Assembly (NCBI GenBank): GCA_003021005.1
Contig: PXRI01000026.1
Span: 1-64,000 of the forward strand
DNA length: 64,000 nt
From: Halobacteriales archaeon QS_1_69_70
GTDB lineage: Archaea > Halobacteriota > Halobacteria > Halobacteriales > Haloarculaceae
Direction: 5' to 3'
The position numbers were made by a program, and so were the translations under genes. Below are positions 39,832-58,794 of the stretch, in pieces; within the stretch, counting starts at the first letter, position 1; each line of letters begins with the position of its first letter. The notes below the pieces were generated by a model, which did no database searches, was not told the origin of the DNA, and saw only the letters and a program-made list of their open reading frames with translations.

Positions 39832-42800
39832 TCACTCGGGAGGCATCGTCTCGAAGGACGTCGAGTTCGTCTCGCCCGTCGGGTAGTCGTTCGCGTCCGT
39901 CAGTTCGTAGGTGATGTCGTATGCGGTAGCCGACGTGGTGTCGGCGTCACTGGTGTCGGTGTAGTCGGCCGCGATGACGATCCGGTCACCCTCCAGGTCG
40001 GACTCGGATTTGGTCTGGTAGGTGACGCTTTCCACCTGGTTGTTGTTCGCGTTCAGGGAGATCGAACCGTCACCCTCGACGATGGTCCAGTTGGCGCTGT
40101 CGGCGTCATGGCTGACGTCGTCGCTGGTGTTGGTGAGGTCGATCCTGATCGATGCGCCGCCGGTGTCCTCGCCCAGGGTGAAGCCCATCGTTTGGTTCAC
40201 CCGACTCTCGCCTGCCGGGACGTCCTCGACGGTCGGCTCCTGGATGAGCGTCGGCGGGTCGATGGTCACGGTCCGGGAGTCCGTGTCGTTGCGTGCTTCG
40301 GCTTCGAGTTTGGCGTCACCGATCACGTCGCTGTCGAGTTGCTCCGTGTCGTACGTCATCGTGACGTTCGTCGACGCGCCAGGTGCAAGCTGGACCGTTT
40401 CCTCGGGTCCACCCTCGCCGGCCAGCGACAGTAGGATCCCCGAATCGCCCTCGGCGCCGCCCTCGTTCGTGGCCCGGACCGTCGCGGTGAAGGTCTCGCC
40501 GTATTCTATGGGCTCCCCGGAGTCGACGATCTCGACCTCGATCTGCTGGCCTGACGTCGTCTCGAAGGACGTACTTTCAGTGTCGCCGTTCTCCCCTGCG
40601 GCGTAGGAGTTAGCGCTCTCGACCCGGTACTCCACGTCGTAGCGGATGTCGGCATCGGCCGAGGAAGCGTCGATGCCGGACCCCTGGAACCTGATAGTGT
40701 CGCCCTCCGAGTCGTCGGACCCGACCTTGTAAGTGACTTTCCCGTTATCGAGGTCCGGGGAGAGTTCCGTGCCGTCGCCCTGGACGATGGTCCAGCTCCC
40801 GTCGTTGCCGTCGTATTCGACGGCGTCACCGGTGTCGGAGACGTCGCGACGACGGTCTCGGTGTCGGTCGACTCGTCGTTCCAGGTCGCCTTCAGCGTCT
40901 TCTCACCGGTGTTGGTGGGGTCCAGGTTCTCCTGGGTGTCGTACTCCAGGGTGAGTGTGGTGTTTTCGCCTGCCGCGAGGTCGAACTGTCGCTGCGGTCC
41001 GTCCTGGTCGGCCATCGAGAGATCCAACTGTGCGTCATCGGCGTCGGTGTCGCCGACGTTCTCGACGGTGACGTTCGTCTCGACGGTATCGCCGTAGTCT
41101 ACCGGCGACGTCGCGTTGTCGATCGTGACGTTGAGGCGGACGTTCCCGCCCTGGAAGATCTCGACCGTGGCGAACTCTTGGTCGCTCTCGCCCTCGACGA
41201 GTATCTGGTACTCGCCGTTGTCGACCTGTTCCCAGTCCGGTTCCCAGGTCAGGGTGAACGACTCCTCGCCGTCGACGTTCGTGAGGGTCTGGCGGTCGGC
41301 CCGCGGCCTGGCGCTGTCTATCTGATCGCCGCTGCTGTCCCGGATGACGAGGTCGACGTTCTCCTCCCCCTCCATCTCGCCCCTCGCCGTGACGTCGAAC
41401 TCGATTTCGCTCGTTTCCCCCTCCTTGATGGTCTTGAACTCGTCCTCGTCGTCTATGTCGTGTATGAGATCACCCGCCTCCACCTTCATGTCCAGGCGGC
41501 CCGCGACGTTGGAGGTATGCAGGGTCGCGTCTTCCATTACCTGGATGGTGTCGACGAGCGATCCGATGTCGTCCTGGTTCTGGAAGCTGTCCTGGTAAAT
41601 GCTGTCGTCGAGGATGTCCGGGCCGTTCTCGACACTTTCGTTCTGGAGGATGTGGCGGGCCGCGCTCTCCCGCAACTGCATCGAGTTCGGGTCGTTGCTC
41701 GGGTCGTCGGAGAACCCGACGTAGCCGACCCACTCGTCGTTACCGGCGTCGTAGGCCGCTTCGACCTTGACCGAAACCTCTTTGTCGCTGTTGCCGTCCC
41801 GGAGCACGTACTCCATGATGACCCCCTCTCCCTGGACGTTGTCGGTATTTACCGGGACTGCCTCCGCGTTGGCGTATCTGATGCTTTCGATGTTGGCGAT
41901 ATCGACCCACTTCCCGTTGGGGATGACTATCCTGTCCGTGTTGGAGTCGGGCGTGTGCTCGGTGATGCCACCACGGCCGACACCGCCATTCTTTATCTTC
42001 GGCTCTTGCGGCGTGTTGCTTCCCTCGAACTCCGGCGACGGCTTGTCTCCAATGGTCGTGATGGCACACCGGACCGTCCACGGGAACTGATCCGTCTCAT
42101 TGAGTTCGATGCCGACCTCGTTCTCGTCAAGGGCGTCGACGTCGGACAATTCCCCGGCTTCGGACGACACAGTGGTGACCGAGCCGCTCTGGGAGTCGAG
42201 CAGTTCATCATTCCAGACGTCGGCCGAAATCTTCGTCGGCACGACGAGCGTCGGCGTGGCGGACGCGTTCAGTTCCTTCTCCCTCAGGTACCCCTCGCTC
42301 GCCAGCGTGACCGACGTCGTGGGGCTACTTCGGTTCACCTCGCTCTGGACCGGCAGGATGTTGATGTTCGACCCCTGGATGAGGACCTGGGTGGGCTCCG
42401 GATTTAGCCCCTCCCGGGTGGTGACCGTGTTCTCGTAGACGATGGGTGGGGTATCCGAGTCCGAGAGGCGGTTGTACGCCGGATCGTACCGCAGCGCGTC
42501 GGTTTGCGGTGTCGTGCCACAGATCTCCTCCGCGGTCACGTCGACGCGTTCGCCTTTTATCTCGTAGGTTCCGAGCGGTTCCGTTTCGAGTGACCCCTGG
42601 GGGTTCGGTGGATTCACCCCGAACACCCTCGGTCTGTAGCTCGCGCCGAGCCGGAGCGTCGGTGACTGTGGTTCGCCGGAGCTTGCGACCTCGTGGTGGG
42701 CCTGCCGGAGGTCGCCCATGTCCGCCCGGATGTCGCCGTAGTGGTCGAACTCTACTTCCTCGTTCTGCTGTGGGATGACGGTCGTCTGCCATGCCGAGAG

Positions 42801-42896: not shown

Positions 42897-43414
42897 GTGT
42901 GTCGTTTCGTAGTGAGAGCCCGGCGTCTACGGCTCTCGTGGCGTGATACCGCTCGTTTTCGCTCCAGAGTAATGTATCTGAGGGTGATGTTCCGGGTTGA
43001 GCTAAACCCAATTATGGCCGTGTTCCAAGTGGCGTGTCGAGTGGGACAGCCAGCGTGTCGGCGAGGCGCCGAGGTCGCGCTCGCTCCCACGGCCGCCCGC
43101 GGCCGCCAGAAGACTCATTGCCGCTCACGACTCACTCCCCTCGCTGTTCGCGTATTCTCGAGACGCTCGCTTCGCTCGCGTCTAGCTACCGCTCGTCTTC
43201 CGTGCTCCCTTGTTCGCTGCGCGAAAAGTGGGACCGGCGACGCGTCGCAGACGCGCCGAGGCCGCGCCCGCTCCCATGGTCGCTCGCGGGACCGCCGAGA
43301 GTTGAACTCTCACTCGTTCAACTCTCGGGGCCGCTTCCATCTTCCGACCCAGGAAAACTCACAGCGCCTCGCGATGCTCGGCGCTGTTCGCGTGGTGGGT
43401 CGGAACGATTCCAG
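42897..43414. other. Repeat-rich intergenic region before tRNA-Pro
   Basis: No gene is recognised. It holds CGCTCG-type palindromes (for example 43151-43171), two related ~45-base segments (43067-43110 and 43254-43300, sharing CGCCGAGG and CGCTCCCA blocks), and a copy of the tRNA-Pro 3' sequence with a hairpin (43288-43328). Confidence 0.5.
43288..43328. repeat. tRNA-Pro 3'-end fragment with 12-bp hairpin
   Basis: GGGACCGCCGAGAGTTGAAC (43288-43307) copies the 3' half of the tRNA-Pro gene at 43415-43485. The T-arm part of the copy then forms a perfect 12-base stem: CCGAGAGTTGAA (43295-43306) with TTCAACTCTCGG (43317-43328). Confidence 0.7.
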
Positions 43415-43485
43415 TGGGACCGCCGAGAGTTGAACTCGGGTCCAACGCACCCCATGCGCAGAGGATACCACTACCCCACGGTCCC
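43415..43485 (-). tRNA. tRNA-Pro (GGG)
   Basis: A 71-base cloverleaf on the minus strand. The acceptor stem is GGGACCG pairing with CGGTCCC; the D-arm is GGGTAGTGGTATCC; the anticodon loop is ATGGGGT giving GGG (proline); the T-arm is the GAGTTCAACTC region. The discriminator base is A and CCA is not encoded. It follows cbf5 in the conserved operon. Confidence 0.9.
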
Positions 43486-43531
43486 GGGCGTATCGAGGGA
43501 GGGCAACCGCGCCTTTAATCTCTTCGTTTCG

Positions 43532-44410
43532 TCACACCAGCACCCGCTCGAGGACGGCGACCAGGCCCTCGTCGGCGCCCGGGTCGCCGGCCAGCGAGCC
43601 GAGACAGGCCGCGGCGCCGTCGGGGGTATAGCAGGCGACCAGGGCCCCCTCGTCGGCGCCCTCGAGATCGTGCTCGACGACGCCCGGGGCATACACCGGC
43701 GCGCCGTTCGCGATCTCCGCGGCGGTCGAGGGGGCGACGGTGAGCTGCGGGAGCCCCCGGAGGGCGCGTTCGGCGGGCCGGACGACTGCCTGCAGGAGGT
43801 CGGCGTCCCCGTCCTCTTCCCAGAATGCGACGGCATCGGCCAGATCGTGCATGGTGACGAGGCCGGTGTCGTCGAACGTCCCGGTGTGTCGCCGTCGGAG
43901 CTCGCCCATGTTCGCGCCGGTGCCCAGCGCGAGCCCGAGGTCGTGGCAGAGCTTCCTGACGTAGGTCCCGCTGTCGCATTCGACGTCCAGGAGCGCTCGC
44001 CGCTCCTCGGCCTCCAACGCCTCGAGACGGTGGACCGTCCGGGTGCGGAGCCGCCGGGCGACGGCGGACTTCCGCGGCGGCTTCTGGTGGATGGGGCCCT
44101 CGAACTCCGCGAGGATCGACTCGAAGTCCGTCGGCCTGGGGGCGTGGAGTTCGAGGACGGCGACGTATGCCTTGCGGGCGTCGTCGAACACCTGTGCCAG
44201 CCGGGTGGCGTCGCCGGTTAACACCGGCAGACAGCCCGTGACCTTCGGGTCCAGGGTGCCGGCGTGGGCGGCCCGCTCGACCCCGGCGACGTCCCGGACC
44301 CAGGCGGCGACCTGGTGGGCCGACGGCCCCGGCGGCTTGTCGAGGTTGACGACGCCGAACGACAGCAGGTCGGCCGGGTCGCGCTCGGCGGGCGGCCCGC
44401 GCTCGCGCAT
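43532..44410 (-). CDS. cbf5: tRNA pseudouridine synthase Cbf5
   Basis: A 292-residue archaeal Cbf5/TruB-family pseudouridine synthase, the catalytic subunit of H/ACA RNPs (with Nop10, L7Ae and Gar1), which also makes pseudouridine 55 in tRNA. The catalytic Asp is D54 in AHAGTLDPKVTG; the PUA domain occupies the C-terminus (EIANGAPVYAPGVVEHDLEG). N-terminal GVVNLDKPPGPSAHQVAAWV is the family motif. It follows cmk by two bases in the operon that continues from the ribosomal block. Confidence 0.95.
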   Translation of the reverse strand: MRERGPPAERDPADLLSFGVVNLDKPPGPSAHQVAAWVRDVAGVERAAHAGTLDPKVTGCLPVLTGDATRLAQVFDDARKAYVAVLELHAPRPTDFESILAEFEGPIHQKPPRKSAVARRLRTRTVHRLEALEAEERRALLDVECDSGTYVRKLCHDLGLALGTGANMGELRRRHTGTFDDTGLVTMHDLADAVAFWEEDGDADLLQAVVRPAERALRGLPQLTVAPSTAAEIANGAPVYAPGVVEHDLEGADEGALVACYTPDGAAACLGSLAGDPGADEGLVAVLERVLV

Positions 44411-44412
44411 GG

Positions 44413-44991
44413 TCAGAAGTCGTACTCGACGCCCTCGATGGGGACGCGGCCCTCGTCGCCCGAGGGCTCGTAGCCCTCGACGGTCGTGAGGATGACATCC
44501 AGGACGGCCCCCGGCGAGAGGCGGGCGGTGTTGACCGACAGGTCGTAGATGCCCAGTTCCTCGACTTCGATGCCGTAGTACTCCCGGTAGCGGCGGGCCT
44601 CGCTGTCGCGGCGCTCGCTTGTCTCCTCTCGGGCCACCTCGACGGGCTTGTCCTCCCGGTCGGCGATCCGCCGGGCGCGCACCGACAGCGGGGCGTCGAG
44701 CCAGATCCGGAAGTCGGCGTGTTCGCCGGCCATCCAGCCGGCCAGGCGGGACTCGAGCACCACCTCGTCCCGGGTCTCGGCGATCCCGCGGAGCCGCCGG
44801 TCCAGATCGCGGTCGATCTCGTCGTCGTCCTCGGCGAGTTTGTTCAACTCCAGCGGCGTGATGCCGCGCTCGACGGCGAGGTCGCGGAAGATGTCACCAC
44901 CGCTTACGTGGTCGTAGTCGAGGGCCTCGGCCAGCGCGGCGGCGGCGGTGCTCTTCCCGCTGCCGGCGGGGCCGGAGATGGTGACGAGCAT
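44413..44991 (-). CDS. cmk: Cytidylate kinase (archaeal type)
   Basis: A 192-residue kinase that phosphorylates (d)CMP to (d)CDP with ATP. The P-loop is [11 protein letters not shown] at residues 7-17. The start [13 protein letters not shown] places the loop where the family has it; a longer frame (to 45033) adds only a Lys/Arg-rich tail. The conserved [14 protein letters not shown] follows. It is located between the EMC3-like gene and cbf5, as in other haloarchaea. Confidence 0.93.
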
Positions 44992-45102
44992 GGCGACACT
45001 CCGCCGCTGCGGTTGAAAGAGGTTGCCCTTCACGGGCCGGCGCGTCGGTGGCTGGCCTGCCCGGCTGCTCGACGGGTCGGGGTGACAGACCCGGGCGGCC
45101 CG

Positions 45103-45996
45103 TCAGGTCGGCGTCGTCTGGATGTTCAGCGACTTCCGGATGACCTGGGTGAACGCCATCGAGCACAGGAAGTACCAGACGATCCACAACTGGATCGGGC
45201 CTAGTAAGTCGAAGGTCCACTTTCTCTTGCCCACGAAGGGGACGACGATCTTGGACGTTTCGTACACGCCTTCGCCCCCGCTTCGGAACCCGATGGCCCA
45301 GTACATCCACAGGAACACGGGGATGGTCAGCACCATGATCCAGACCATCGGCCGGAACTGCTCTTTGAACATCCCGAGGTTGTCGGCCATCGCCTCCATC
45401 TGTTCGTCCTGGATCCGATCGAGGGCCTCGTCGTCGCCGCGCTCCTTGGCCTCCTTGCGGCGCTGCTGGATCTCCTTCATCCGGTCCTGGTAGGCACCCA
45501 TGACCTCCATATCCATGAGGTTCGCCTGCAGGAGCGTCGAGTACAGGCCGGTGAAAAGCGCAAGCACCATCACGACGGCGAAGAAGGGGAGCAGTTCCAT
45601 GAGCGGGCCGAACGCGATGTCGAGGGTGCCCGCCAGCGGGTCCCGAACCTCGCTGAAGGTGTAGCCGGCGAACAGCGCGATCGACACCACAGCGGCCATC
45701 TTGTCCCACTTCGTCCACGACGAGTCCTCGTCGGGAGCGTCCGGCAGCTCCAGGTCGTCGTCCGAGAGCGCCGACCGGACCCCCTCGGGGTCGGCGACGT
45801 CGAACCCCTCGCCGTCGGAGTCGACGAGGACGCCCGTCTCGATGAGCCGTCCCCACTGGCCGCTCGTCAACTCCTCGGAGACGTCGCCCCACGCGACGCT
45901 GCCCTCCCCGGCCGTCTCGAGGACGTGCTCGAGGGCCGCCTCCATCTCGGCGTCCTCCGAGACGAGGTCCTGTACCTTCGATGCGGTCCGTGCCAT
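45103..45996 (-). CDS. DUF106 / EMC3-like membrane insertase
   Basis: A 297-residue protein of the DUF106 family, archaeal relatives of the Oxa1/YidC/EMC3 insertases. It has an acidic N-terminal domain (~1-95), then helices at about 98-118, 138-160, 205-230 and 265-285. Cytosolic coiled region QDRMKEIQQRRKEAKERGDD sits between helices two and three, as in Oxa1 proteins. It probably helps insert or fold membrane proteins made by SecYE. Its location just downstream of adk and SecY fits that role. Confidence 0.88.
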   Translation of the reverse strand: MARTASKVQDLVSEDAEMEAALEHVLETAGEGSVAWGDVSEELTSGQWGRLIETGVLVDSDGEGFDVADPEGVRSALSDDDLELPDAPDEDSSWTKWDKMAAVVSIALFAGYTFSEVRDPLAGTLDIAFGPLMELLPFFAVVMVLALFTGLYSTLLQANLMDMEVMGAYQDRMKEIQQRRKEAKERGDDEALDRIQDEQMEAMADNLGMFKEQFRPMVWIMVLTIPVFLWMYWAIGFRSGGEGVYETSKIVVPFVGKRKWTFDLLGPIQLWIVWYFLCSMAFTQVIRKSLNIQTTPT

Positions 45997-46080
45997 TGAC
46001 GTCGTGTTAGGAAGCGGCCGTAATCAACCTTTTACCTTCCCGATTGGAGATATCTCAAGCGCGCGTTTCACATTACGGGC

Positions 46081-46090
46081 CTTTTTAAGC
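46081..46090 (+). promoter_or_regulatory. TATA-like element
   Basis: CTTTTTAAGC lies about 27 bases before ATG 46113 (leaderless spacing). Confidence 0.6.
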
Positions 46091-46112
46091 GTCTTCAGAG
46101 GACAGGGAGCGT

Positions 46113-46646
46113 ATGGAACGACGGCGTCTGCTCTCTGCCGGCCTCCTCGTCGCGACCGGACTGGCCGGGTGCAACACCGGCGGGCCCGACGAGGAACCAA
46201 CCGGTACGGCGACGGACATTCCCTCGGCGACGACGTCGCCCGCCCCGGATCCGGCGGACGCCCCCATCGCGGACGAACTCGATAGCTACAGGTTCGACAT
46301 CGTAGGTGGGGCTGATCCCGAGGGTCCACACATCGAGGAAGTCGACGTGACGTTCGAGCCCGCCGCGAACGCCGTCGTCGTGTCCAGCACAGTCGTCGTC
46401 GGCTCCAGTCGATGTTTTCGGGTCGGTCTCGAATCGCTGTTGTATGGCGAGGAGACGCTTCAGGTAGCGATTACGTCCACGGGCAAGGACGTGATGGCAG
46501 CCTACGAACGCCGGAATACCTATGTAGGCTGCACCAGCGACCTCATTGCCCAGGAATACAGCCTCCGGGCGACCTTCGACGGCGGCCTCCCCGGGCGGGT
46601 CGTCGTCCGGGAACCCGGCGACGTCATCGAGGATGTGGAACGGTGA
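46113..46646 (+). CDS. Tat-exported lipoprotein, hypothetical
   Basis: A 177-residue protein starting MERRRLLSAGLLVATGLAGC: twin-arginine motif, hydrophobic core and lipobox Cys near residue 20, so it is probably a membrane-anchored lipoprotein. The mature half begins with a low-complexity Thr/Pro linker and continues as a beta-rich domain with two Cys (SSRCFRVG and YVGCTSD), which may form a disulfide. It lies on the opposite strand between the DUF106 gene and adk, which it converges with. Confidence 0.75.
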   Translation: MERRRLLSAGLLVATGLAGCNTGGPDEEPTGTATDIPSATTSPAPDPADAPIADELDSYRFDIVGGADPEGPHIEEVDVTFEPAANAVVVSSTVVVGSSRCFRVGLESLLYGEETLQVAITSTGKDVMAAYERRNTYVGCTSDLIAQEYSLRATFDGGLPGRVVVREPGDVIEDVER

Positions 46647-46674
46647 TCGGAAAGCACCTCGGCGCACGCCCTCT

Positions 46675-47307
46675 TCAGGTCACAGACTCGATTTCCTCGT
46701 GCAGGGCCGCCCAGACCTCCTCGGGCGACCCCTCGCCGTCGATCCGCACGAGTTCGCCCGCCTCGTCGTAGTACTCGACGACGGGTCGGGTGTTCGCCGC
46801 GAAGACGTCGAGGCGCTCTTCGACCGTCTCCTCGTCGTCGTCATCGCGCTGGACGAGGTCGCCACCACACCTGTCGCACACGCCCGTCTCCACCGGCGGA
46901 TCGAACTCGACGTGGTAGTTCTCGCCGCAGTTCGCACAGATCCGGCGGCCGGACAGCCGCGCGATCAGTTCCTCGCGGGGGACCTCCAGCAGGGCGACGA
47001 GGTCGAGGTCCGCGATGTCATCGAGGTACTCCGCCTGGGCGATGTTCCGGGGATAGCCGTCCAGCACGAAGCCGTCGGCCGCGTCGATAGCGGCCTCGAC
47101 GATCTCGTTGACGACCGGGTCGGGGACGAGTTCGCCGGCCTCCATGTACTCGCGTGGCGCCCCGTGGGCGGTCTCCATGTCCTTGTTCGCACGGAGGGCG
47201 TCGCCCGTGGTGACGTGGTCGACGCCGTACTCGTCGACGACGTTGCTCGACTGGGTGCCCTTGCCGGCGCCGGGCGGCCCCAACAGCAGGACGTTCGGCT
47301 TGCTCAT
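46675..47307 (-). CDS. adk: Adenylate kinase
   Basis: A 210-residue adenylate kinase (AMP + ATP to 2 ADP). The P-loop is [13 protein letters not shown] near 7-19; [15 protein letters not shown] carries the AMP-binding region. The LID domain holds a four-Cys zinc site (CANCGENYH and CDRCGG). ATG 47307 ([10 protein letters not shown]) is preferred over an upstream frame start that adds ten Arg/Lys-rich residues. It is in the SecY-Adk-DUF106-Cmk-Cbf5 block conserved in haloarchaea. Confidence 0.95.
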
Positions 47308-47392
47308 ACGCGCCGGTTTTCGGCCCCCGGTCATAGAGTTGTCCCACCGCGGCGAGCGCCGCCTTCTTGACTACTGCGGCGAAACGGCACCC

Positions 47393-47740
47393 ATGGAGTC
47401 GACCCCGGATGATCGGCGCCAAGCGGTGGTGTCGGCGATCGCGACGGCCCGCCGGGCCGACGACCGGGTCGAGTTCGTCGCCGACGACACGGACGACCGG
47501 GTGGTCTTCGAGGACCGTCGCCTCCGGGTCGAGGTGGCCGACCGCGACCGGCTGGAGGCCCTCCTCGAGGAGTACGGCGTGTTCAAGGTCCGCCAGCCGG
47601 CCACCCGGAAGGCCGACGACGGCGTGGTCTACCTCTCCGCGGTCACCGACCCGAAACACGCCGCCGACTTCGTCGAGGCGCTGTTCCGCGAGGTGTATGA
47701 CGCGCCGAGGGACTACCGGCTCCGGGTCGAATCGGGGTAG
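47393..47740 (+). CDS. Hypothetical protein between adk and secY
   Basis: A 115-residue alpha/beta protein (MESTPDDRRQAVVSAIATAR at the start, FKVRQPATRKADDGVVYLSA in the middle). The frame is GC3-rich and looks coding. It is encoded opposite to adk and secY, so it is not part of their transcript. I do not recognise a family. Confidence 0.65.
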   Translation: MESTPDDRRQAVVSAIATARRADDRVEFVADDTDDRVVFEDRRLRVEVADRDRLEALLEEYGVFKVRQPATRKADDGVVYLSAVTDPKHAADFVEALFREVYDAPRDYRLRVESG

Positions 47741-47929
47741 CCCTGTCGTCGACGACGCCGACGGTTCCACGGTTGACTTGGCAGTGGGGTGCTTCGGTAC
47801 CGGCCTGGCCGCTACCGTCGCGGGGCGGCCTGGACGGGCCGCCCGCACGTGCGCCGACGCCGTTGCGACGCCGAGAAACGCGCTGGTACGCAACCAATCC
47901 GACGCACATCAGGGAGATGTTCGGCGGCT

Positions 47930-49287
47930 CTACCCGAACATCTGTCGCATCATCGGGTGCATCTCCATCAACTGCTCTTCGGCGATCTCTTCGTAGAGTT
48001 TGTAGGTGATGGAGACGGTGAGCAGCAGGCCGGTGCCGGTGACCTGCCCGATGGTGCCCAGCATGTTCGCCATGACGGCGAGCAGGCCGACGAGGGCGCC
48101 ACCGATCACGGTGACCTGCGGGATGTATCGCTCTAGGACCTTCTCGGTGACGCCGGGCGACTGCCGGAACCCCGGGATCTGCATCCCGGAGTTTTGGATC
48201 TGTTTGGCGGTCGCCTTCGGCCCCATGCCGGTGGTCCGGCCGAGCCACCACATCCAGTCACCTCGTCTGTAGATGGGTGCCAGATAGTAGAACAGTCCGT
48301 CGATGGGCTGGGCGAAGCCGCTGGGCGGGTCGTTGTACTGGCCGAGCCACGGGAGCCGTTCGCCGAACAGGACGATCGCCGACTCGTCGTCCGGCGACTG
48401 CGAGTACAGGATGCGGCCGAGGAACTGGATGTTCGCCTGGAGCGCCCGGACGAGGATCATCGGCAGGACGCTGGCGTAGATGAGCTTCACGGGGAAACGG
48501 CCTCGGGCGCCCTTCACACGCGAGTGTGAAAGCGGAATCTCGACGCGGACGGACTCCGCGTAGACGACCACGACGAAGATGAGAAACGTCGTGACGAAGA
48601 TGAGAAACGTCGTGAGGAGTGCGAGGAGCCGGCCCTGGTCGAGGAAGAGGTCCGACAGCCCCGACATCGTCAACGGCGAGCCGATCTCGATGGCGCCCGT
48701 CAGGATGCCGTACCACTGGGGGAAGAAGCCGATGTAGTCGCTCCCGAGGCCCTCCCAGGAGAGGAATCCGCCGATGAGCCGCTGGCTCACGCCGGCGATG
48801 ATGAACAGCCCGATCCCGGAGCCGACGCCCCACTTGGAGATGATCTCGTCCATGTACAGTATCATCATCCCGCCGACGAAGATCTGGGCGAACATGATCC
48901 AGGCCAGTGCCGTCGTGCTGATCCCGAGCTGCAGGGCAATATCCGAGTTCGGCCTGAGGAAGCCGGCGAACACCATCGGCGCCGCGGTCAGCGCCGTCAT
49001 CACGATGACGAGCGTCTTCTGGAGGCCCTGATAGAGCGCCTGATCGCGGGGATTCTCCTCGGTGTCGAGCCCGAGGAGGTCCGCGCCGCCGAGCAGCTGG
49101 AGCACGATCGACGCCGTGACGATCGGACCGATCCCGACCTGGAGCAGCGACCCCTGGGCGCCGCCCAGGATCGACCGGAACCGCCGGCCGTCCAGCCGAG
49201 CTTGCGCCTGAACGGGACGTGGCCCGTCGGGCGCTCGACGGCGGGGAGTCGCGTGAGAACCGGTTCGGCGGCCTCCTTCCAGCTCAT
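47930..49287 (-). pseudogene. secY: Preprotein translocase SecY, first helix lost by out-of-frame deletion
   Basis: SecY is the channel subunit of the Sec translocon. The N-terminus MSWKEAAEPVLTRLPAVERP and LGWTAG are intact in one frame, and from RFRSILGGAQGSLLQVGIGP to the C-terminal QLMEMHPMMRQMFG the protein is intact in another. The segment between, which normally encodes the first transmembrane helix (about 26 residues), is missing and the frames do not match (junction ~49180-49188). About 80 bases appear to have been lost. secY is essential, so an assembly or consensus error is the likeliest explanation. A natural product would start only at ATG 49105, lacking helix 1. Confidence 0.85.
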
Positions 49288-49812
49288 CTACGCGTCCTCG
49301 TTAGCCTCGTCCGTTGTATCTCTGTCGGCTTCCTCCGCCGCCTCCGCCTCGGCCTCGGCGGCCAGTTCCTCGCCACGTTCCGAGAGCACGGCCTCGCCGC
49401 CGGCGTCCTCGAGGGCCGCGGCGGCGTCCTCGGAGAAGTCGTCGGCGACGACTTCCAGGGACTCGTGGACGCGGCCGCCGCCCAGCACCTTCACGACGTC
49501 GACGTCGTGGCCGTCGTCGACGACGTCGCGGGCGTCGACCCGGTAGCCGTCGCCGGTCTCCTCGGCGTCGCCATCGGCGGCCAGCACGACGGCGTCCTCG
49601 TCGAGTTCGCGGACGTTGATCGTTTCGACGTCCCGCTGTACCTTCTGCGGTCGGTCGAAGCCGGACTTGCCGAGCGGCTCGTAGTCGTGGAACTCGTGTT
49701 TGTCGCGGCCGGCGCGGCCGCGGCCGCCGCGGTTGCCGGCGCCGCGCCGGTTCTTCTGGCTGCCGCCGCCGTGGGTCCGGGAGCCGCGCTGGCGGCGCGT
49801 CTTGTCCGTCAT
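49288..49812 (-). CDS. rpl15: Ribosomal protein uL15
   Basis: A 174-residue large-subunit protein. The Gly/Arg-rich N-terminus RQRGSRTHGGGSQKNRRGAG that penetrates 23S rRNA is present, followed by the globular domain and an acidic tail (EELAAEAEAEAAEEADRDTT). The start overlaps the uL30 stop by one base. It is the last ribosomal gene before secY. Confidence 0.95.
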   Translation of the reverse strand: MTDKTRRQRGSRTHGGGSQKNRRGAGNRGGRGRAGRDKHEFHDYEPLGKSGFDRPQKVQRDVETINVRELDEDAVVLAADGDAEETGDGYRVDARDVVDDGHDVDVVKVLGGGRVHESLEVVADDFSEDAAAALEDAGGEAVLSERGEELAAEAEAEAAEEADRDTTDEANEDA

Positions 49813-50276
49813 CACCGCATCACCTCCAGGAGGCCGTCGAGTTCCGCGGTGGAGTGTGGGCCGAGCTGCCCGCCCTCGACCGTCGGACGCTTGAGGCCGT
49901 CGTGGCCGCCCCGCGGCGGGTGCAGCCGGAGCGTCGGCGACAGCCCCTGCTCGGACAGCGTGGTCTCCTCGTCGAGGAGCGCCGCCGCGAGCGCGCCGAC
50001 GTCGTCGTAGTCGGTGCGGTCGGCGACCCATTCGTCGTCGATCGCGGCGTCGCCCTCGGCGGGCTCGGCGCGCCGCTCTAACAGCAGCGCCACGGTCTCA
50101 GCGGAGGGCTCGCCGTGGGCGACCCAGTCGTTGACCTTCGCGACCATGCCGCGGTAGGCCTCGGTGTCCGGGACGAAGGTCGCGTGGTTCACCCGACCGA
50201 GGTTCAGCATCTCGAGGGTGTCTTCGACCTCGGCGCTCTGGTTGACCTCGCCGCGGACCTGGACGACCGCCCTCAT
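49812..50276 (-). CDS. rpl30: Ribosomal protein uL30
   Basis: A 154-residue archaeal-length uL30. It opens [20 protein letters not shown] and contains [20 protein letters not shown], the conserved core. The archaeal C-terminal extension ([20 protein letters not shown]) is present. The start overlaps the uS5 stop by four bases. Confidence 0.95.
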
Positions 50277-50905
50277 TCGACCACCTCCCGCTTCTGTAGG
50301 GTGCGCTCAGGCACCCGGGACTCGGCGGTCGCAGTCAGCGCGTCGAACGTCGCCTTCGCGAAGTTGACCGTCGTCCGCGTGTTCCCGGACGACCGTGTCC
50401 AGCTGTCCTCGATGCCGGCCAACTCGAGGACGTGCCGGACGGTCTCGCCGCCGGCCAGTCCCAGCCCGCGCGGCGCGGGCTGCAGTTCGACCTCGACGGA
50501 CCCCGCCTTGCCGGTGGTCCCGAGCGCGACGGTATGCGGTCGACCGCAACCGCACTCCCAGGAGCCACAGCCGCGGGAGACGTCGACGATGTTCAGCTTC
50601 GCGATGTCGATCGCCTTCTGGATCGCGCCGCCGACCTGGTCGTCGCGACCCTGGGCGTAGCCGACGAAGCCGTCGCGGTTCCCCACGACGACGACACACC
50701 GGAACTTCACCCGGCGGCCGGAGTCGGTCATCCGCTGGACCATGTTGATGTCGAGCACCTCGTCTTCCAGTCCCGGGAGGAGCTGGTCTATGATCTCCGG
50801 TTCCTTCAGCGGGAGCCCGGACTGCAGGGCCTCGCCCATCGCGGTGATTTCGTCCTCTGCGACCTTCCGTCCGAGCCGCGTGCGCGGCTCCCATCCGTTA
50901 CTCAT
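50273..50905 (-). CDS. rps5: Ribosomal protein uS5
   Basis: A 210-residue small-subunit protein. The double-stranded-RNA-like N-terminal domain ([20 protein letters not shown]) and the C-terminal [20 protein letters not shown] are intact; length is as expected for archaea. It overlaps uL18 by a few bases. Confidence 0.95.
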
Positions 50906-51455
50906 ACGTGTCCTCCAGGCGCTGTCGCACCTCGTCGAAGTGGGCCGGCAGCTCGGTCGCGTCGAAGTCGCCGCTGTACAGCTCCTCGTCGAGCTGCTCG
51001 GCGTACGCCGCGACGTGTGTCCCGCGGGTCCGCTCCCAGTCGGCGAACACCGACTCGTTGTGCGGGATCTCCAGCCCTGCGTCGATCGCTCCCTCCTGTA
51101 CTGCGAACACCTTGTTGCCGGGCGTCGCCGTGTTGAGCCCGATGTCGAGGACGGCCGCCTCGAGGCCGGCCTCGACCGCCCGGGCGCCGGCGAGGTAGCC
51201 GGTCAGGTACGCCGCGGGCAGGTTGCCCGTCGGCGCCTCCCAGCCGTAGTCGCCGAGTTCGCCCGAGACGGCGCTCGTGACGGTCTCGTCGCCCCGAGGG
51301 CCCGTGACGATCAGCTGCGCCCTGGTGTGGTCGTTGCTCTTCCGGGCGACCAGGCGTGGCTTGCCCGATTTCAGCAGGCGCAGCCGCTGGTGGTAGTCGG
51401 TCCGGGCCTCGCGGCGACGACGCATCGGCACCTTGTACCGTGGTCCTGTCGCCAT
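50898..51455 (-). CDS. rpl18: Ribosomal protein uL18
   Basis: A 185-residue archaeal uL18, which binds 5S rRNA. The N-terminus [20 protein letters not shown] is basic as expected, and [20 protein letters not shown] is intact. The ATG at 51455 is preferred over a GTG one codon upstream. Confidence 0.95.
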
Positions 51456-51904
51456 CACTGCTCACCCCGGGTGTCCTCGACGTACCGCCGCAGGTCACCC
51501 ACGCTGTCGAACTCGCCACCGCTGGCCATGTCGTACAGCTCGCGGTACTGCGAGCGGGTGATCTCGTCATCGTCGCGCAGCTCCCGCAGCGTGCGGCGCT
51601 GTGCGCGGATGCGGCTCTGCCACTCCGCCGATCCGTCCGTGCGACCGCCCGACGTGCCCTTCCGGGAGCCGTGTCCGCTCCGGTGGCCGTAGGCGCGCTT
51701 CTCGTTGCGCTCGCGGGCCCGGCCACGGGAGTTACCCTGCGTGGGCTCGGCCTCGATGACGCCGTCCTCGATGAGGTCGCGCACGTCCTCGCGCGTGATG
51801 GCGTCGGCGATCTCGCCCTGGGCCTCCGGGTCGAACCGGACGCGGTTCTTCCCGACGCCGAGCACGTCGGCGGCCAGTCGCTTCTGTGCCGTCAGGTCAG
51901 TCAT
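51455..51904 (-). CDS. rpl19e: Ribosomal protein eL19
   Basis: A 149-residue archaeal/eukaryotic-type L19. It has [20 protein letters not shown] and a long basic helix region ([20 protein letters not shown]). One-base overlap with uL18. Intact. Confidence 0.95.
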
Positions 51905-53337
51905 TCTTCGAGTTCCACCTCGACGTAGGTCGGGTTGAGGACGCGGATTTCCTCCGCCTCGGCGACCTCCTCGATGCGCTCGCGCTTGCGAGCGCCGACG
52001 GTCGCGCCGATGCGGACGGCCTCCCGGTCCCCGTCGACGCCGTCGAGGTCGTCGACGTTCTCGACGCGGACCTCCTCGAAGCCGCTCGGGTGCCTGCCGC
52101 GCACCGCGGTCGGCGTCCGGAAGCCCGCCTCGACGGTATCGCCCTTCCCCTTGACGCCGCGGCGCTGCTTCGACAGCTGGCCGCGCGGGCGGCGCCAGGA
52201 GGTGGGCGTGCGCTTCTTCACGTGGTGGTCCTGCCGGTTGAACTGCGGCTTCCCGTCGCGCCGACGCTGTCGGAGGAGCCGTTCCTCCTCGTCGGTCAGC
52301 TCGGGCGTCTTCTCGACCAGTCCGCGGGGCCGCAGTTCGGTCTCGACCTCGGCCTCGGCCTCTTCGTCCGGCTCCGGCTCTTCCTCTTCGAGTTCGGCCT
52401 CGGTCTCCTCGGCGACCTCGAGGTCGCCGACGTCGGCCTTGATCCGGGCCGCCAGCGCGTTCCCGACGTCCTCGACGTCGGCCAGCTCCGACTGGCTCGC
52501 CCCGCGGATGGCGTCGACGGAGTCGTAGCCGGCCTCGCGGAGCGATTCGGCCTTCGAGTCGCCGACGCCGGCGATGTCCTCGAGACCCGAGGGGCCGGCG
52601 TCGGCCTCGTCGGCCGCGTCGGCCGCCGCAGTCCCATCGGCCTCGTCAGTCGCGTCTGCCTCGTCGGCCGCTGTCTCGCCGACGTCGTCGGCAGCGTCGT
52701 CAGCCGCGACGTCAAGGTCGTCGGCAGCCGACGCGTCATCATCGTCGTCGTGCTCCTCGACGTCGTCGAGGGCCTCGGAGGCTTCGGGGTCGGACTCGGC
52801 GACGTCGGCCCTGATCTGTGTCGCCAGCTCCTCGTCGAAGCCGGTGATGTCGGCGAGCTTCTCGACGGAGGCCTCCCGCAGGTCGTCCACGTCCTCGTAG
52901 CCGGAGCCGCCGAGCACCTTCGCCTTCTGCAGGCCGACGCCCGTGACGTCCGTCAGGTCGTCGAACTCCGTCTCGCCGACGTCGGCCTTGATCCGGGCGG
53001 CGAGGGCCTCGTCGATGCCCTCGACGTCGGTGAGGTCCGCGACGGAGGCTTCCTTCAGCTGGGCGGCCGACTCGAAGCCGGCGCCGCCGAGCTTCCGGGC
53101 CCGCTGGGGGCCGATCGACTCGACGTCTGTCAGCACCTCGTACTCGAGGTCGCCGACCGCCTCGAGGATGTTCTCGGCGGTCGCCTCTTCGATGCCGTCG
53201 ATCTCGACCAGCTCGGTGACCGACGCGTCTCCCAGCGCCTCGATGGAGCCGTAGCCCGCACCGCCGAGCTTCCCGGCGGTCGCGGGACCGACGCCCTCGA
53301 CGTCCGTCAGTTCCTCGTAGGTCTCCTCGTCCGCCAT
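51901..53337 (-). CDS. rpl32e: Ribosomal protein eL32 with four helix-hairpin-helix modules
   Basis: A 478-residue protein whose last ~135 residues (344-478) are canonical eL32 ([20 protein letters not shown] and [20 protein letters not shown]). Before it lie four ~53-residue helix-hairpin-helix repeats at about 9-61, 69-121, 127-179 and 251-303, each with an LTDVEGVG-type hairpin and an AARIKADVG-type second hairpin. Two acidic low-complexity linkers (~185-250 and ~305-340) separate them. Haloarchaeal eL32 normally carries about one such module (total ~240 residues), so this is roughly double. Extra modules could bind rRNA or DNA; their role is unknown. The frame is intact. Confidence 0.93.
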
Positions 53338-53763
53338 CAGACCTCACCTCGCTCGGGCGTCGCCGTGATGTAGACGCCGTCCTGGAAGACGCGCGTGTCC
53401 TTGTCGGGCACGCGGGTCAACTGTTCGATGTCGGCCGCCGTCTGGCCGACGTCCTCGATGCTCGGGCCGCGGATGGTCAGTCGTTCGCCGTCGACTTCGA
53501 CGTCGGTGTCGCCGCGGACGGTGGTCCGCCGCGGCGCCGTCTCGCCGAGGAAGTTTTCGATCCTGACCTCCGCCCCATCGACGGCGACCTGCATCGGGAA
53601 GTGGGAGTAGAAGACCTCCATCTCGTACTCCCAGCCCTCGGTCACGCCGTGGATCATGTTCCCAGAGCCGTCTCGTGACGCTCCCGTTCGGCCCCTCGAC
53701 GGTCAGCTCGAGGTGGTCCATCGTCGCCGCGACCTCCTCGGGGATCTCGATAGTCTCCTTCAT
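53337..53763 (-). pseudogene. rpl6: Ribosomal protein uL6 with out-of-frame internal deletion
   Basis: uL6 sits by the factor-binding site of the large subunit and is essential. The N-terminus (MKETIEIPEEVAATMDHLEL to SVTRRLW) is in one frame and the C-terminal two thirds (NMIHGVTEGWEYEMEVFYSH to the end) in another, joined at about 53661. Haloarchaeal uL6 has ~178 residues; the 427-base gene here is about 110 bases short, matching loss of the ~37 residues (YPDI... to ...SHID in relatives) between RRLW and NMIHG. Natural loss of a core ribosomal protein is implausible unless a second copy exists, so suspect assembly. Confidence 0.88.
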
Positions 53764-53765
53764 TG

Positions 53766-54158
53766 TCAGTATACGTATGCGATCACCTGGCCACCGACGC
53801 CCGTCTCGCGGGCGTCGTAGTGGCTCATGATGCCGTGGCTGGTCGTGACGACGAGCGTCCCGTAGTCGCGGGCCGGGAGGAACCGCTTTTCCCATTTCTC
53901 GAACTCGTCGGCGCCCGCCGCGTAGCGGGGCTTGACCGCGCCACACTCGTTGATCGCGCCCTTCAGTTCGACCTCGAACGTGCCGGCCTTGCCGTCCTCG
54001 ACGTACTGGAAGCCGTCGACGTAGCCGCGGTCGTAGAGGACCTCGAGGACGGAGCCGATCTCGTTCGAGGCGGGCGATATCGTCTGCTCCAGGTGGCCGA
54101 CGCTCTCGGCGTTGTCGAGTCCCGACAGCGCGCTGGCCAGTGGGTCGTTGTCCGCCAT
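53766..54158 (-). CDS. rps8: Ribosomal protein uS8
   Basis: A 130-residue small-subunit protein of normal archaeal length, MADNDPLASALSGLDNAESV at the start and SHGIMSHYDARETGVGGQVI at the end. Two bases separate it from the uL6 gene. Intact. Confidence 0.95.
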   Translation of the reverse strand: MADNDPLASALSGLDNAESVGHLEQTISPASNEIGSVLEVLYDRGYVDGFQYVEDGKAGTFEVELKGAINECGAVKPRYAAGADEFEKWEKRFLPARDYGTLVVTTSHGIMSHYDARETGVGGQVIAYVY

Positions 54159-57648: not shown

Positions 57649-58794
57649 TCAGTCGCCCCCCTCGTCGTCCTCGTCGGCCGCGTCGGTCGATTCTTCGTCG
57701 GTCGAATCCTCCTCGGTCGAATCCTCGCCCGCCGATTCCTCGTCGGGGGATTCATCACCAGCCGATCCTTCGTCAGCCGAATCCTCGGCCGATTCCTCAT
57801 CGGCGGATTCATCGTCAGCCGATTCATCCGCATCGGCGGACTCGGTCCCGTCATCATCATTGACCGCACCGGTGTCTCCCTCGGGTTCCGTCTCGTCGTC
57901 AGCCACCGCCTCCTCCATCTCCTCGACGAGTTCGGCGGCCTCCTCCTCGACGTCCTCGTCGAGGGCCTCGGGCTCCTCTTGCCCGCCCTCGGCGGAGTCC
58001 GGCGGCGAGGTCGGTGACTCGCCGGTCTCGGCGTCGACCTCCGCTTCGATGATCTCCTCGTCCGGCGCCTCGGCCGCGGTCTCCTGTTCTATGACCTCCT
58101 CGGGGTCGGCGCCGACGGGTTCGGCCTCGGCCTCGTCGGGAGTCTCGAGGAGTTCGTCGACGTCGCCGTCGGCTTCCTCGACGAGTTCGGCGACCTCGAC
58201 GTCCTCGTAGACCTCGAAGTCGTCGGGCAGCTGGGCGTCCGGCGGGATGATCTTCACGCGGACGCCGATGGTGCCCAGCTTCATCACGGCGGTGCCGACG
58301 CCGCTGTCGACGATCTCCTCGGCGGGCTCGCCGTTGTGCTTGACGTAGCCGCGGTTGAACTTCTCCACGCGCGAGCGGGCGCCCGTGACCTTCCCGCTCA
58401 GGACGATCTCCGCGCCCAGCGCGCCGGCGTCCATGATGCGGTCGATGGTCGTGTGGCCGGCCTTCCGGAAGTACCAGCCGCGCTCTAGGGCGTTCGCCAG
58501 CCGGTCGGCGACGACCTGGGCGTTCAGGTCGGGCTCGTCGACCTCCTGGACGTCGACCTGCGGGTCCTCGAGGTCGAACCGTTCCTCGAGCTCCGTGGTG
58601 ATCTTCCGGATGTTCTTGCCGCCCTTCCCGATGACCATCCCGGGCTTTTCGGCCTTCAGGACGATCTGGGTGCCCATCGGCGTCTTGGCGACCTCCATGC
58701 CGCCGTAGCCCGCGCGGGACAGTTCCTCGGAGAAGAACTCGTCTATCCGGGTCCGCTGGAGGCCGTCGTGGATGAACTGGTGTTCGTCCGCCAT
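57649..58794 (-). CDS. rps3: Ribosomal protein uS3 with repetitive acidic tail
   Basis: A 381-residue uS3. The type-II KH domain is intact ([24 protein letters not shown] at 56-59) along with [16 protein letters not shown] near 195-210. Beyond ~residue 215 the protein is an acidic Glu/Asp/Ser tail of ~165 residues including tandem [14 protein letters not shown]-type repeats. Haloarchaeal uS3 usually has an acidic tail but is typically nearer 300 residues. It is near the mRNA entry site, so the tail may project there. One-base overlap with uL22. Confidence 0.95.

What the first reader, a model, noticed from the sequence alone, without database searches (positions are those of the whole stretch)
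47930..49287. secY lacks the segment encoding its first transmembrane helix, out of frame
LGWTAG ends one frame and RFRSILGGAQG begins the other, at about 49180-49188; the first transmembrane helix normally lies between. Loss of ~80 bases in an essential gene, next to a similar lesion in rpl6, points to a systematic cause.
Basis: partly seen in the sequence, partly recalled or inferred. Interest (0 to 1): 0.7.

Follow-up and report, generated by a model that had tools for sequence, protein, structure and literature searches.

The report
Assembly gap, not a broken secY
The gene for a protein-export channel in this salt-loving archaeon looks broken because short pieces are missing at joins in the assembled sequence, and other genes there and in a sister draft genome show similar losses, so this is almost certainly an assembly error and not biology.

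Summary
secY (47930-49287, minus strand) lacks 73 nt encoding most of TM1 at 49181/49182, out of frame, relative to its closest relative (MAG QH_7_69_31); 19 of 19 other genomes of the genus have TM1. rpl6 lacks 107 nt at 53661/53662. The missing TM1 piece was found nowhere else in the assembly, which has one SecY locus.

The cause is systematic but most likely technical. This MAG and QH_7_69_31 differ by 34 abrupt losses of 40-306 nt in 122 kb, in both directions; three same-genus control pairs of similar identity have 4 in 130 kb. Only 13 of 34 are multiples of three. They hit secY, rpl6, gyrB and aIF6 here, and rps5 and GAPDH in the sister MAG. N-marked gaps with a comparator understate the true gap in 5 of 7 cases. 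The sister MAGs' names match a project assembled with IDBA_UD, whose local assembly errors are described in print.

No reads were available and this genome's source is unnamed, so assembler and mechanism are inferred. Verdict: not a real feature.

The parts
49182..49287 (-). secY 5' piece (codons 1-35, up to LGWTAG), frame 1
49181..49185 (-). junction 1: 73 nt (most of TM1) absent relative to G014; 75-79 nt relative to the other relatives aligned; 4-nt imperfect overlap at the join
47930..49181 (-). secY 3' piece in the shifted frame, with its stop at 47930; carries junction 2 and the duplication
   Evidence: PF00344 221.8 bits against a cut-off of 32.2
48572..48615 (-). in-frame 21-nt exact tandem duplication within secY, absent in the seven aligned relatives
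48234..48237 (-). junction 2: 96 nt (32 codons, a membrane helix) absent, in frame; 3-nt overlap at the join
   Evidence: the segment separates two matches in 38 of 39 other genomes, the 39th (G037) having one match at a contig edge
53662..53763 (-). rpl6 5' piece (MKETIEIPEEV...)
53661..53662 (-). rpl6 junction: 107 nt absent relative to G014 and G016, out of frame, no overlap at the join
53337..53661 (-). rpl6 3' piece in the shifted frame (PF00347)

Best explanation
Local assembly (scaffold-join) error in a short-read metagenome assembly. Where the assembler failed to build a short stretch, the flanking pieces were placed directly together without Ns, so 40-200 nt vanish without a mark; elsewhere gaps of similar size are marked with Ns. 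secY, rpl6 and other genes in this MAG, and a different set in the sister MAG, carry such joins. The living organism most likely has an ordinary intact secY. Shown: the losses, their number, their indifference to frame and to the kind of gene, their excess over control pairs, and N-gaps that usually understate the real gap. Inferred: that this genome was assembled with IDBA_UD like its sister MAGs, and the exact failing step.
For: (1) 34 abrupt losses of 40 nt or more in 122,119 aligned bases between this MAG and G014 (14 in this MAG, 20 in G014; 93.9% identity) against 4 in 129,894 bases for three same-genus control pairs at 93-94% (Poisson about 3e-21). (2) 13 of 34 are multiples of three, what a frame-blind process gives (binomial P 0.59). 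(3) They break indispensable or near-universal genes: secY twice, rpl6, gyrB (171 nt inside the ATPase domain) and aIF6 (69 nt at the N-terminus) here; rps5, MoeA, GAPDH and enoyl-CoA hydratase genes in G014. (4) Among 10 loci whose record names fit that project, 4 have lost 15 or more residues from a ribosomal protein beyond naturally variable linkers, one of them at an N-marked gap; 0 of 70 other loci have such a loss. (5) Of seven N-gaps of 60 or more with a comparator, five are marked shorter than the real distance (78 for 159, 96 for 194, 144 for 282, 128 for 235, 68 for 108), so shorter gaps could easily be closed to nothing. (6) Sites Sw, Qh and Qs, Illumina paired reads of 100 bases and IDBA_UD are stated in PMC5532433 (passages); [quoted passage not shown] (7) No second SecY and no stray TM1 segment in the assembly.
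Against: Control pairs cover only the secY neighbourhood, which is more conserved than some contigs compared. Not every loss lies in a proven gene (2 of 31 had no ORF spanning them). Seven of 31 junctions have overlaps of 8-28 nt, which true slippage could also leave. Lost segments do not differ from random ones in GC or folding energy, so the reason assembly failed there is unknown. Exact tandem duplications are not enriched (5 in 308 kb, 1.6 per 100 kb, against 0-1.9 in the others), so the 21-nt duplication is not explained. One N-gap is overstated and one exact.
Confidence: 0.94

Rival explanations
1. Real deletions: this secY copy is a pseudogene, or a deletion-bearing minority of the population was assembled, and an intact copy exists in cells or in the unassembled part of the genome.
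For: The MAG is 82% complete, so a second copy could be missing; 7 of 31 junctions have overlaps of 8-28 nt, as slippage leaves.
Against: secY sits in its usual place in the ribosomal gene cluster beside an equally broken rpl6, and gyrB and aIF6 are hit too; the sister MAG has its own set of losses; 18 of the 20 genomes of the genus searched gave one match to the SecY N-terminus each besides G014, and this one gave only the two pieces.
Confidence: 0.04
2. A real shortened SecY that starts after TM1 and works without it.
For: The 3' piece is an open frame of 456 codons counted stop to stop.
Against: 19 of 19 other genomes of the genus have TM1; the same copy has also lost a second helix; the sequence of TM1's 5' flank is kept and would be useless; rpl6 next door is frame-shifted.
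Confidence: 0.01
3. The missing piece is supplied at the RNA or protein level (a separately coded segment joined in trans).
For: None found.
Against: The G014 segment has no match elsewhere in the assembly better than E 0.07, and there is no shared signal at the junctions.
Confidence: 0.003

Closest known systems
Archaeal SecY (Pfam PF00344) of the Natronomonas-like haloarchaea
   Same: Sequence, gene order (after rpl15 and before adk) and 82-89% identity over the aligned part to the closest relatives
   Different: As assembled it lacks TM1 and a later helix and has a frame break and a 21-nt duplication
Local assembly errors in uncurated metagenome-assembled genomes, as described in PMC7111523 (passages seen)
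   Same: Wrong or missing sequence at joins that breaks genes; N-gaps of wrong size in the same genomes
   Different: That paper's diagnostic, absence of perfectly supporting reads, could not be applied here

Membership tests
SecY (PF00344) | Match to the family profile above its cut-off | tested here: met
   221.8 bits against 32.2 over profile positions 1-306
SecY (PF00344) | One open frame that includes TM1, as in relatives | tested here: not met
   Two frames with 73 nt missing: the locus is secY, but the assembled copy is not an intact one
Local assembly error | Assembled junction not supported by reads | not testable with these tools
   No reads held
Local assembly error | Excess of abrupt losses over comparable genomes | tested here: met
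   34 in 122 kb against 4 in 130 kb
Local assembly error | Indifference to reading frame | tested here: met
   13 of 34 multiples of three
Local assembly error | Known error-prone pipeline used for this very genome | tested here: inconclusive
   Sister records are named QH/QS/SW like the sites of PMC5532433; the window's own record is unnamed

The most novel reading that the evidence does not exclude
A living haloarchaeon whose only chromosomal secY lacks TM1 and a second helix and is frame-shifted, so that export works with a truncated SecY or with pieces brought together by an unknown route.
Probability: 0.01. Interest if true: 0.9.

Novelty: not a real feature. Interest (0 to 1): 0.06.

Why it matters
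It matters only as a warning: in this MAG and its sister, abrupt unmarked losses occur about once per 9 kb and 6 kb of compared sequence (14 and 20 in 122 kb), so apparent gene losses, truncations and frameshifts in them, and surveys built on them, should not be taken as biology without read support.

Tried and rejected
A second secY or a stray TM1 segment elsewhere in the assembly: none found. Hairpins or extreme GC in the lost segments as the reason for assembly failure: 13 losses here average GC 0.679 against 0.698 for random segments and -0.199 against -0.207 kcal/mol per nt; 18 in G014 likewise unremarkable. Tandem duplications of one k-mer length as a mark of unmerged contig ends: not enriched. 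I first misread negative gaps as tandem duplications at the joins; one search showed that they are single-copy overlaps. Mosaic of two strains as the cause of the joins: 12 runs of 200 or more identical bases against 0.01 expected under uniform divergence, but conserved genes alone could give this, so it is left open. One search was useless because loci were in mixed orientation; one search repeats it properly. In one search I set aside before comparing: 4 of 9 raw lesions in the 10 project-like loci and 1 of 20 in the 70 others in the variable linker of the L32e gene, 10 of those 20 as a shared 12-aa difference in one ORF, and 5 as a shared N-terminal offset in another; that leaves 5 against 4, of which 5 against 0 are losses of 15 or more residues. 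Four of the 24 'conserved' ORFs look like wrong-frame ORFs (my judgement). G016 (complete) also shows single abrupt losses: 1 in 39 kb against this MAG (164 nt) and 1 in 22 kb against G011 (85 nt).

Full report
What is there. Its relatives are Natronomonas-like haloarchaea; the closest found is MAG QH_7_69_31 (G014; PXQY01). secY lies on the minus strand at 47930-49287. Codons 1-35 (to LGWTAG) are in one frame, and from 49181 the gene goes on in another. Aligned with seven relatives, 73 nt are missing relative to G014, encoding most of TM1 and the loop after it. Thirty-five residues before the join are 100% and 76 after it 99% identical to G014.

More lesions than reported. The same gene has lost 96 nt in frame at 48237/48236, a whole membrane helix, and has an in-frame 21-nt tandem duplication at 48572-48615. 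rpl6 has lost 107 nt at 53661/53662, out of frame. A possible further loss of 124 nt relative to two relatives lies at 40846/40847 in a gene that I could not identify. Against the complete genome G016 the losses in this MAG over 39 kb are exactly the three in secY and rpl6.

It is peculiar to this assembly. SecY is open over 480-676 codons in 38 of 39 other genomes and 365 in G037, whose match lies at a contig edge. TM1 is intact in 19 of 19 other members of the genus. The assembly has one SecY match, and the missing segment, searched with flanks from G014, has no other match better than E 0.07.

It is systematic. I compared about 308 kb of this genome with G014 contigs: in 122,119 aligned bases at 93.9% identity there are 14 abrupt losses of 40 nt or more here and 20 in G014, from 40 to 306 nt. 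Three control pairs of the genus (G015, G010 and G001, in the region around secY) at 93-94% identity have 0, 3 and 1 in 129,894 bases (Poisson P about 3e-21). The control covers only that region, so the ninefold ratio is approximate. In the secY neighbourhood alone (G014 contig C17, 12.3 kb) this MAG and G014 already show three and two losses. G013, another MAG with a name of the same style, has four losses (47-313 nt) against G011 in 24 kb, and G011 has none.

It is blind to frame and function. Thirteen of the 34 are multiples of three, close to one third. Of the 31 found between alignment blocks, 29 are spanned by an open frame in the longer form, though in such GC-rich DNA that alone proves little. 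Profiles confirm real genes for those tested: here gyrB (171 nt inside the ATPase domain), aIF6 (69 nt at its start) and a nuclease with a lamin-tail domain (75 nt); in G014 MoeA, GAPDH, enoyl-CoA hydratase, a pyridine nucleotide-disulphide oxidoreductase and rps5. A cell could not live with the secY, rpl6 and gyrB alleles as assembled (general knowledge).

The likely mechanism. These MAGs also contain N-gaps. For seven of them with 60 or more Ns a relative shows the true distance: five are marked too short by 40-138 nt, one too long by about 47 and one is exact (the 68-N case lies in a repeat and is ambiguous, and the 144-N case in this very contig rests on one relative). A scaffolder that understates gaps by about 100 nt would close real gaps of 50-150 nt without any N, which is the size range seen. 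This step is inference. Lost segments have ordinary GC and folding energy, and 7 of 31 joins have overlaps of 8-28 nt, so the failing step may differ from case to case. Short indels of 3-30 nt are also commoner in the MAG pair (0.43 and 0.57 per kb against 0.04-0.17 in control pairs), which fits error but also the less conserved regions compared.

The pipeline. Passages of PMC5532433 give sites Sw, Qh and Qs, 100-base paired Illumina reads and IDBA_UD scaffolds; the QH, QS and SW record names fit it, but the link from record to project is by name, and the window's own record is not shown. [quoted passage not shown] In 10 loci with such names, 203 gene checks gave 5 lesions after setting aside naturally variable places (rps5, rpl6, rpl5 at an N-gap, rpl19e, rps8; in 4 loci), all losses of 15 or more residues; in 70 other loci 1518 checks gave 4, none such a loss.

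Conclusion. Without reads this stays at 94%, not certainty.

Noticed in passing
48572-48615: Exact in-frame 21-nt tandem duplication in secY absent from seven aligned relatives; tandem duplications are not enriched in this genome, so it may be real or another join error.
   Followed up: partly
40846-40847: Abrupt loss of 124 nt relative to G011 and G013 in an unidentified gene.
   Followed up: partly
57674-57913: About 240 extra bases relative to G011 and G013 (about 200 relative to G016) in the acidic, repeat-rich tail of the rps3 gene.
   Followed up: no
L045 13969-14112 (G000:C26, beyond the window): 144 Ns where G016 has 282 bases between the same flanks (one comparator).
   Followed up: yes
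L138 (G000:C12), about 14564; L143 (G000:C8), about 11858: gyrB lacks 171 nt in the ATPase domain and aIF6 lacks 69 nt at its start, both in frame, relative to G014.
   Followed up: yes
L036 about 9021 and 11855 (G014 contig C17): The sister MAG has its own losses: 180 nt in rps5 and 44 nt in rpl6, where this genome is intact.
   Followed up: yes
43376-53854 and sampled contigs: Twelve runs of 200 or more bases identical to G014 amid 94% mean identity (0.01 expected under uniform divergence): conserved genes, recombination or strain-mixed assembly.
   Followed up: partly
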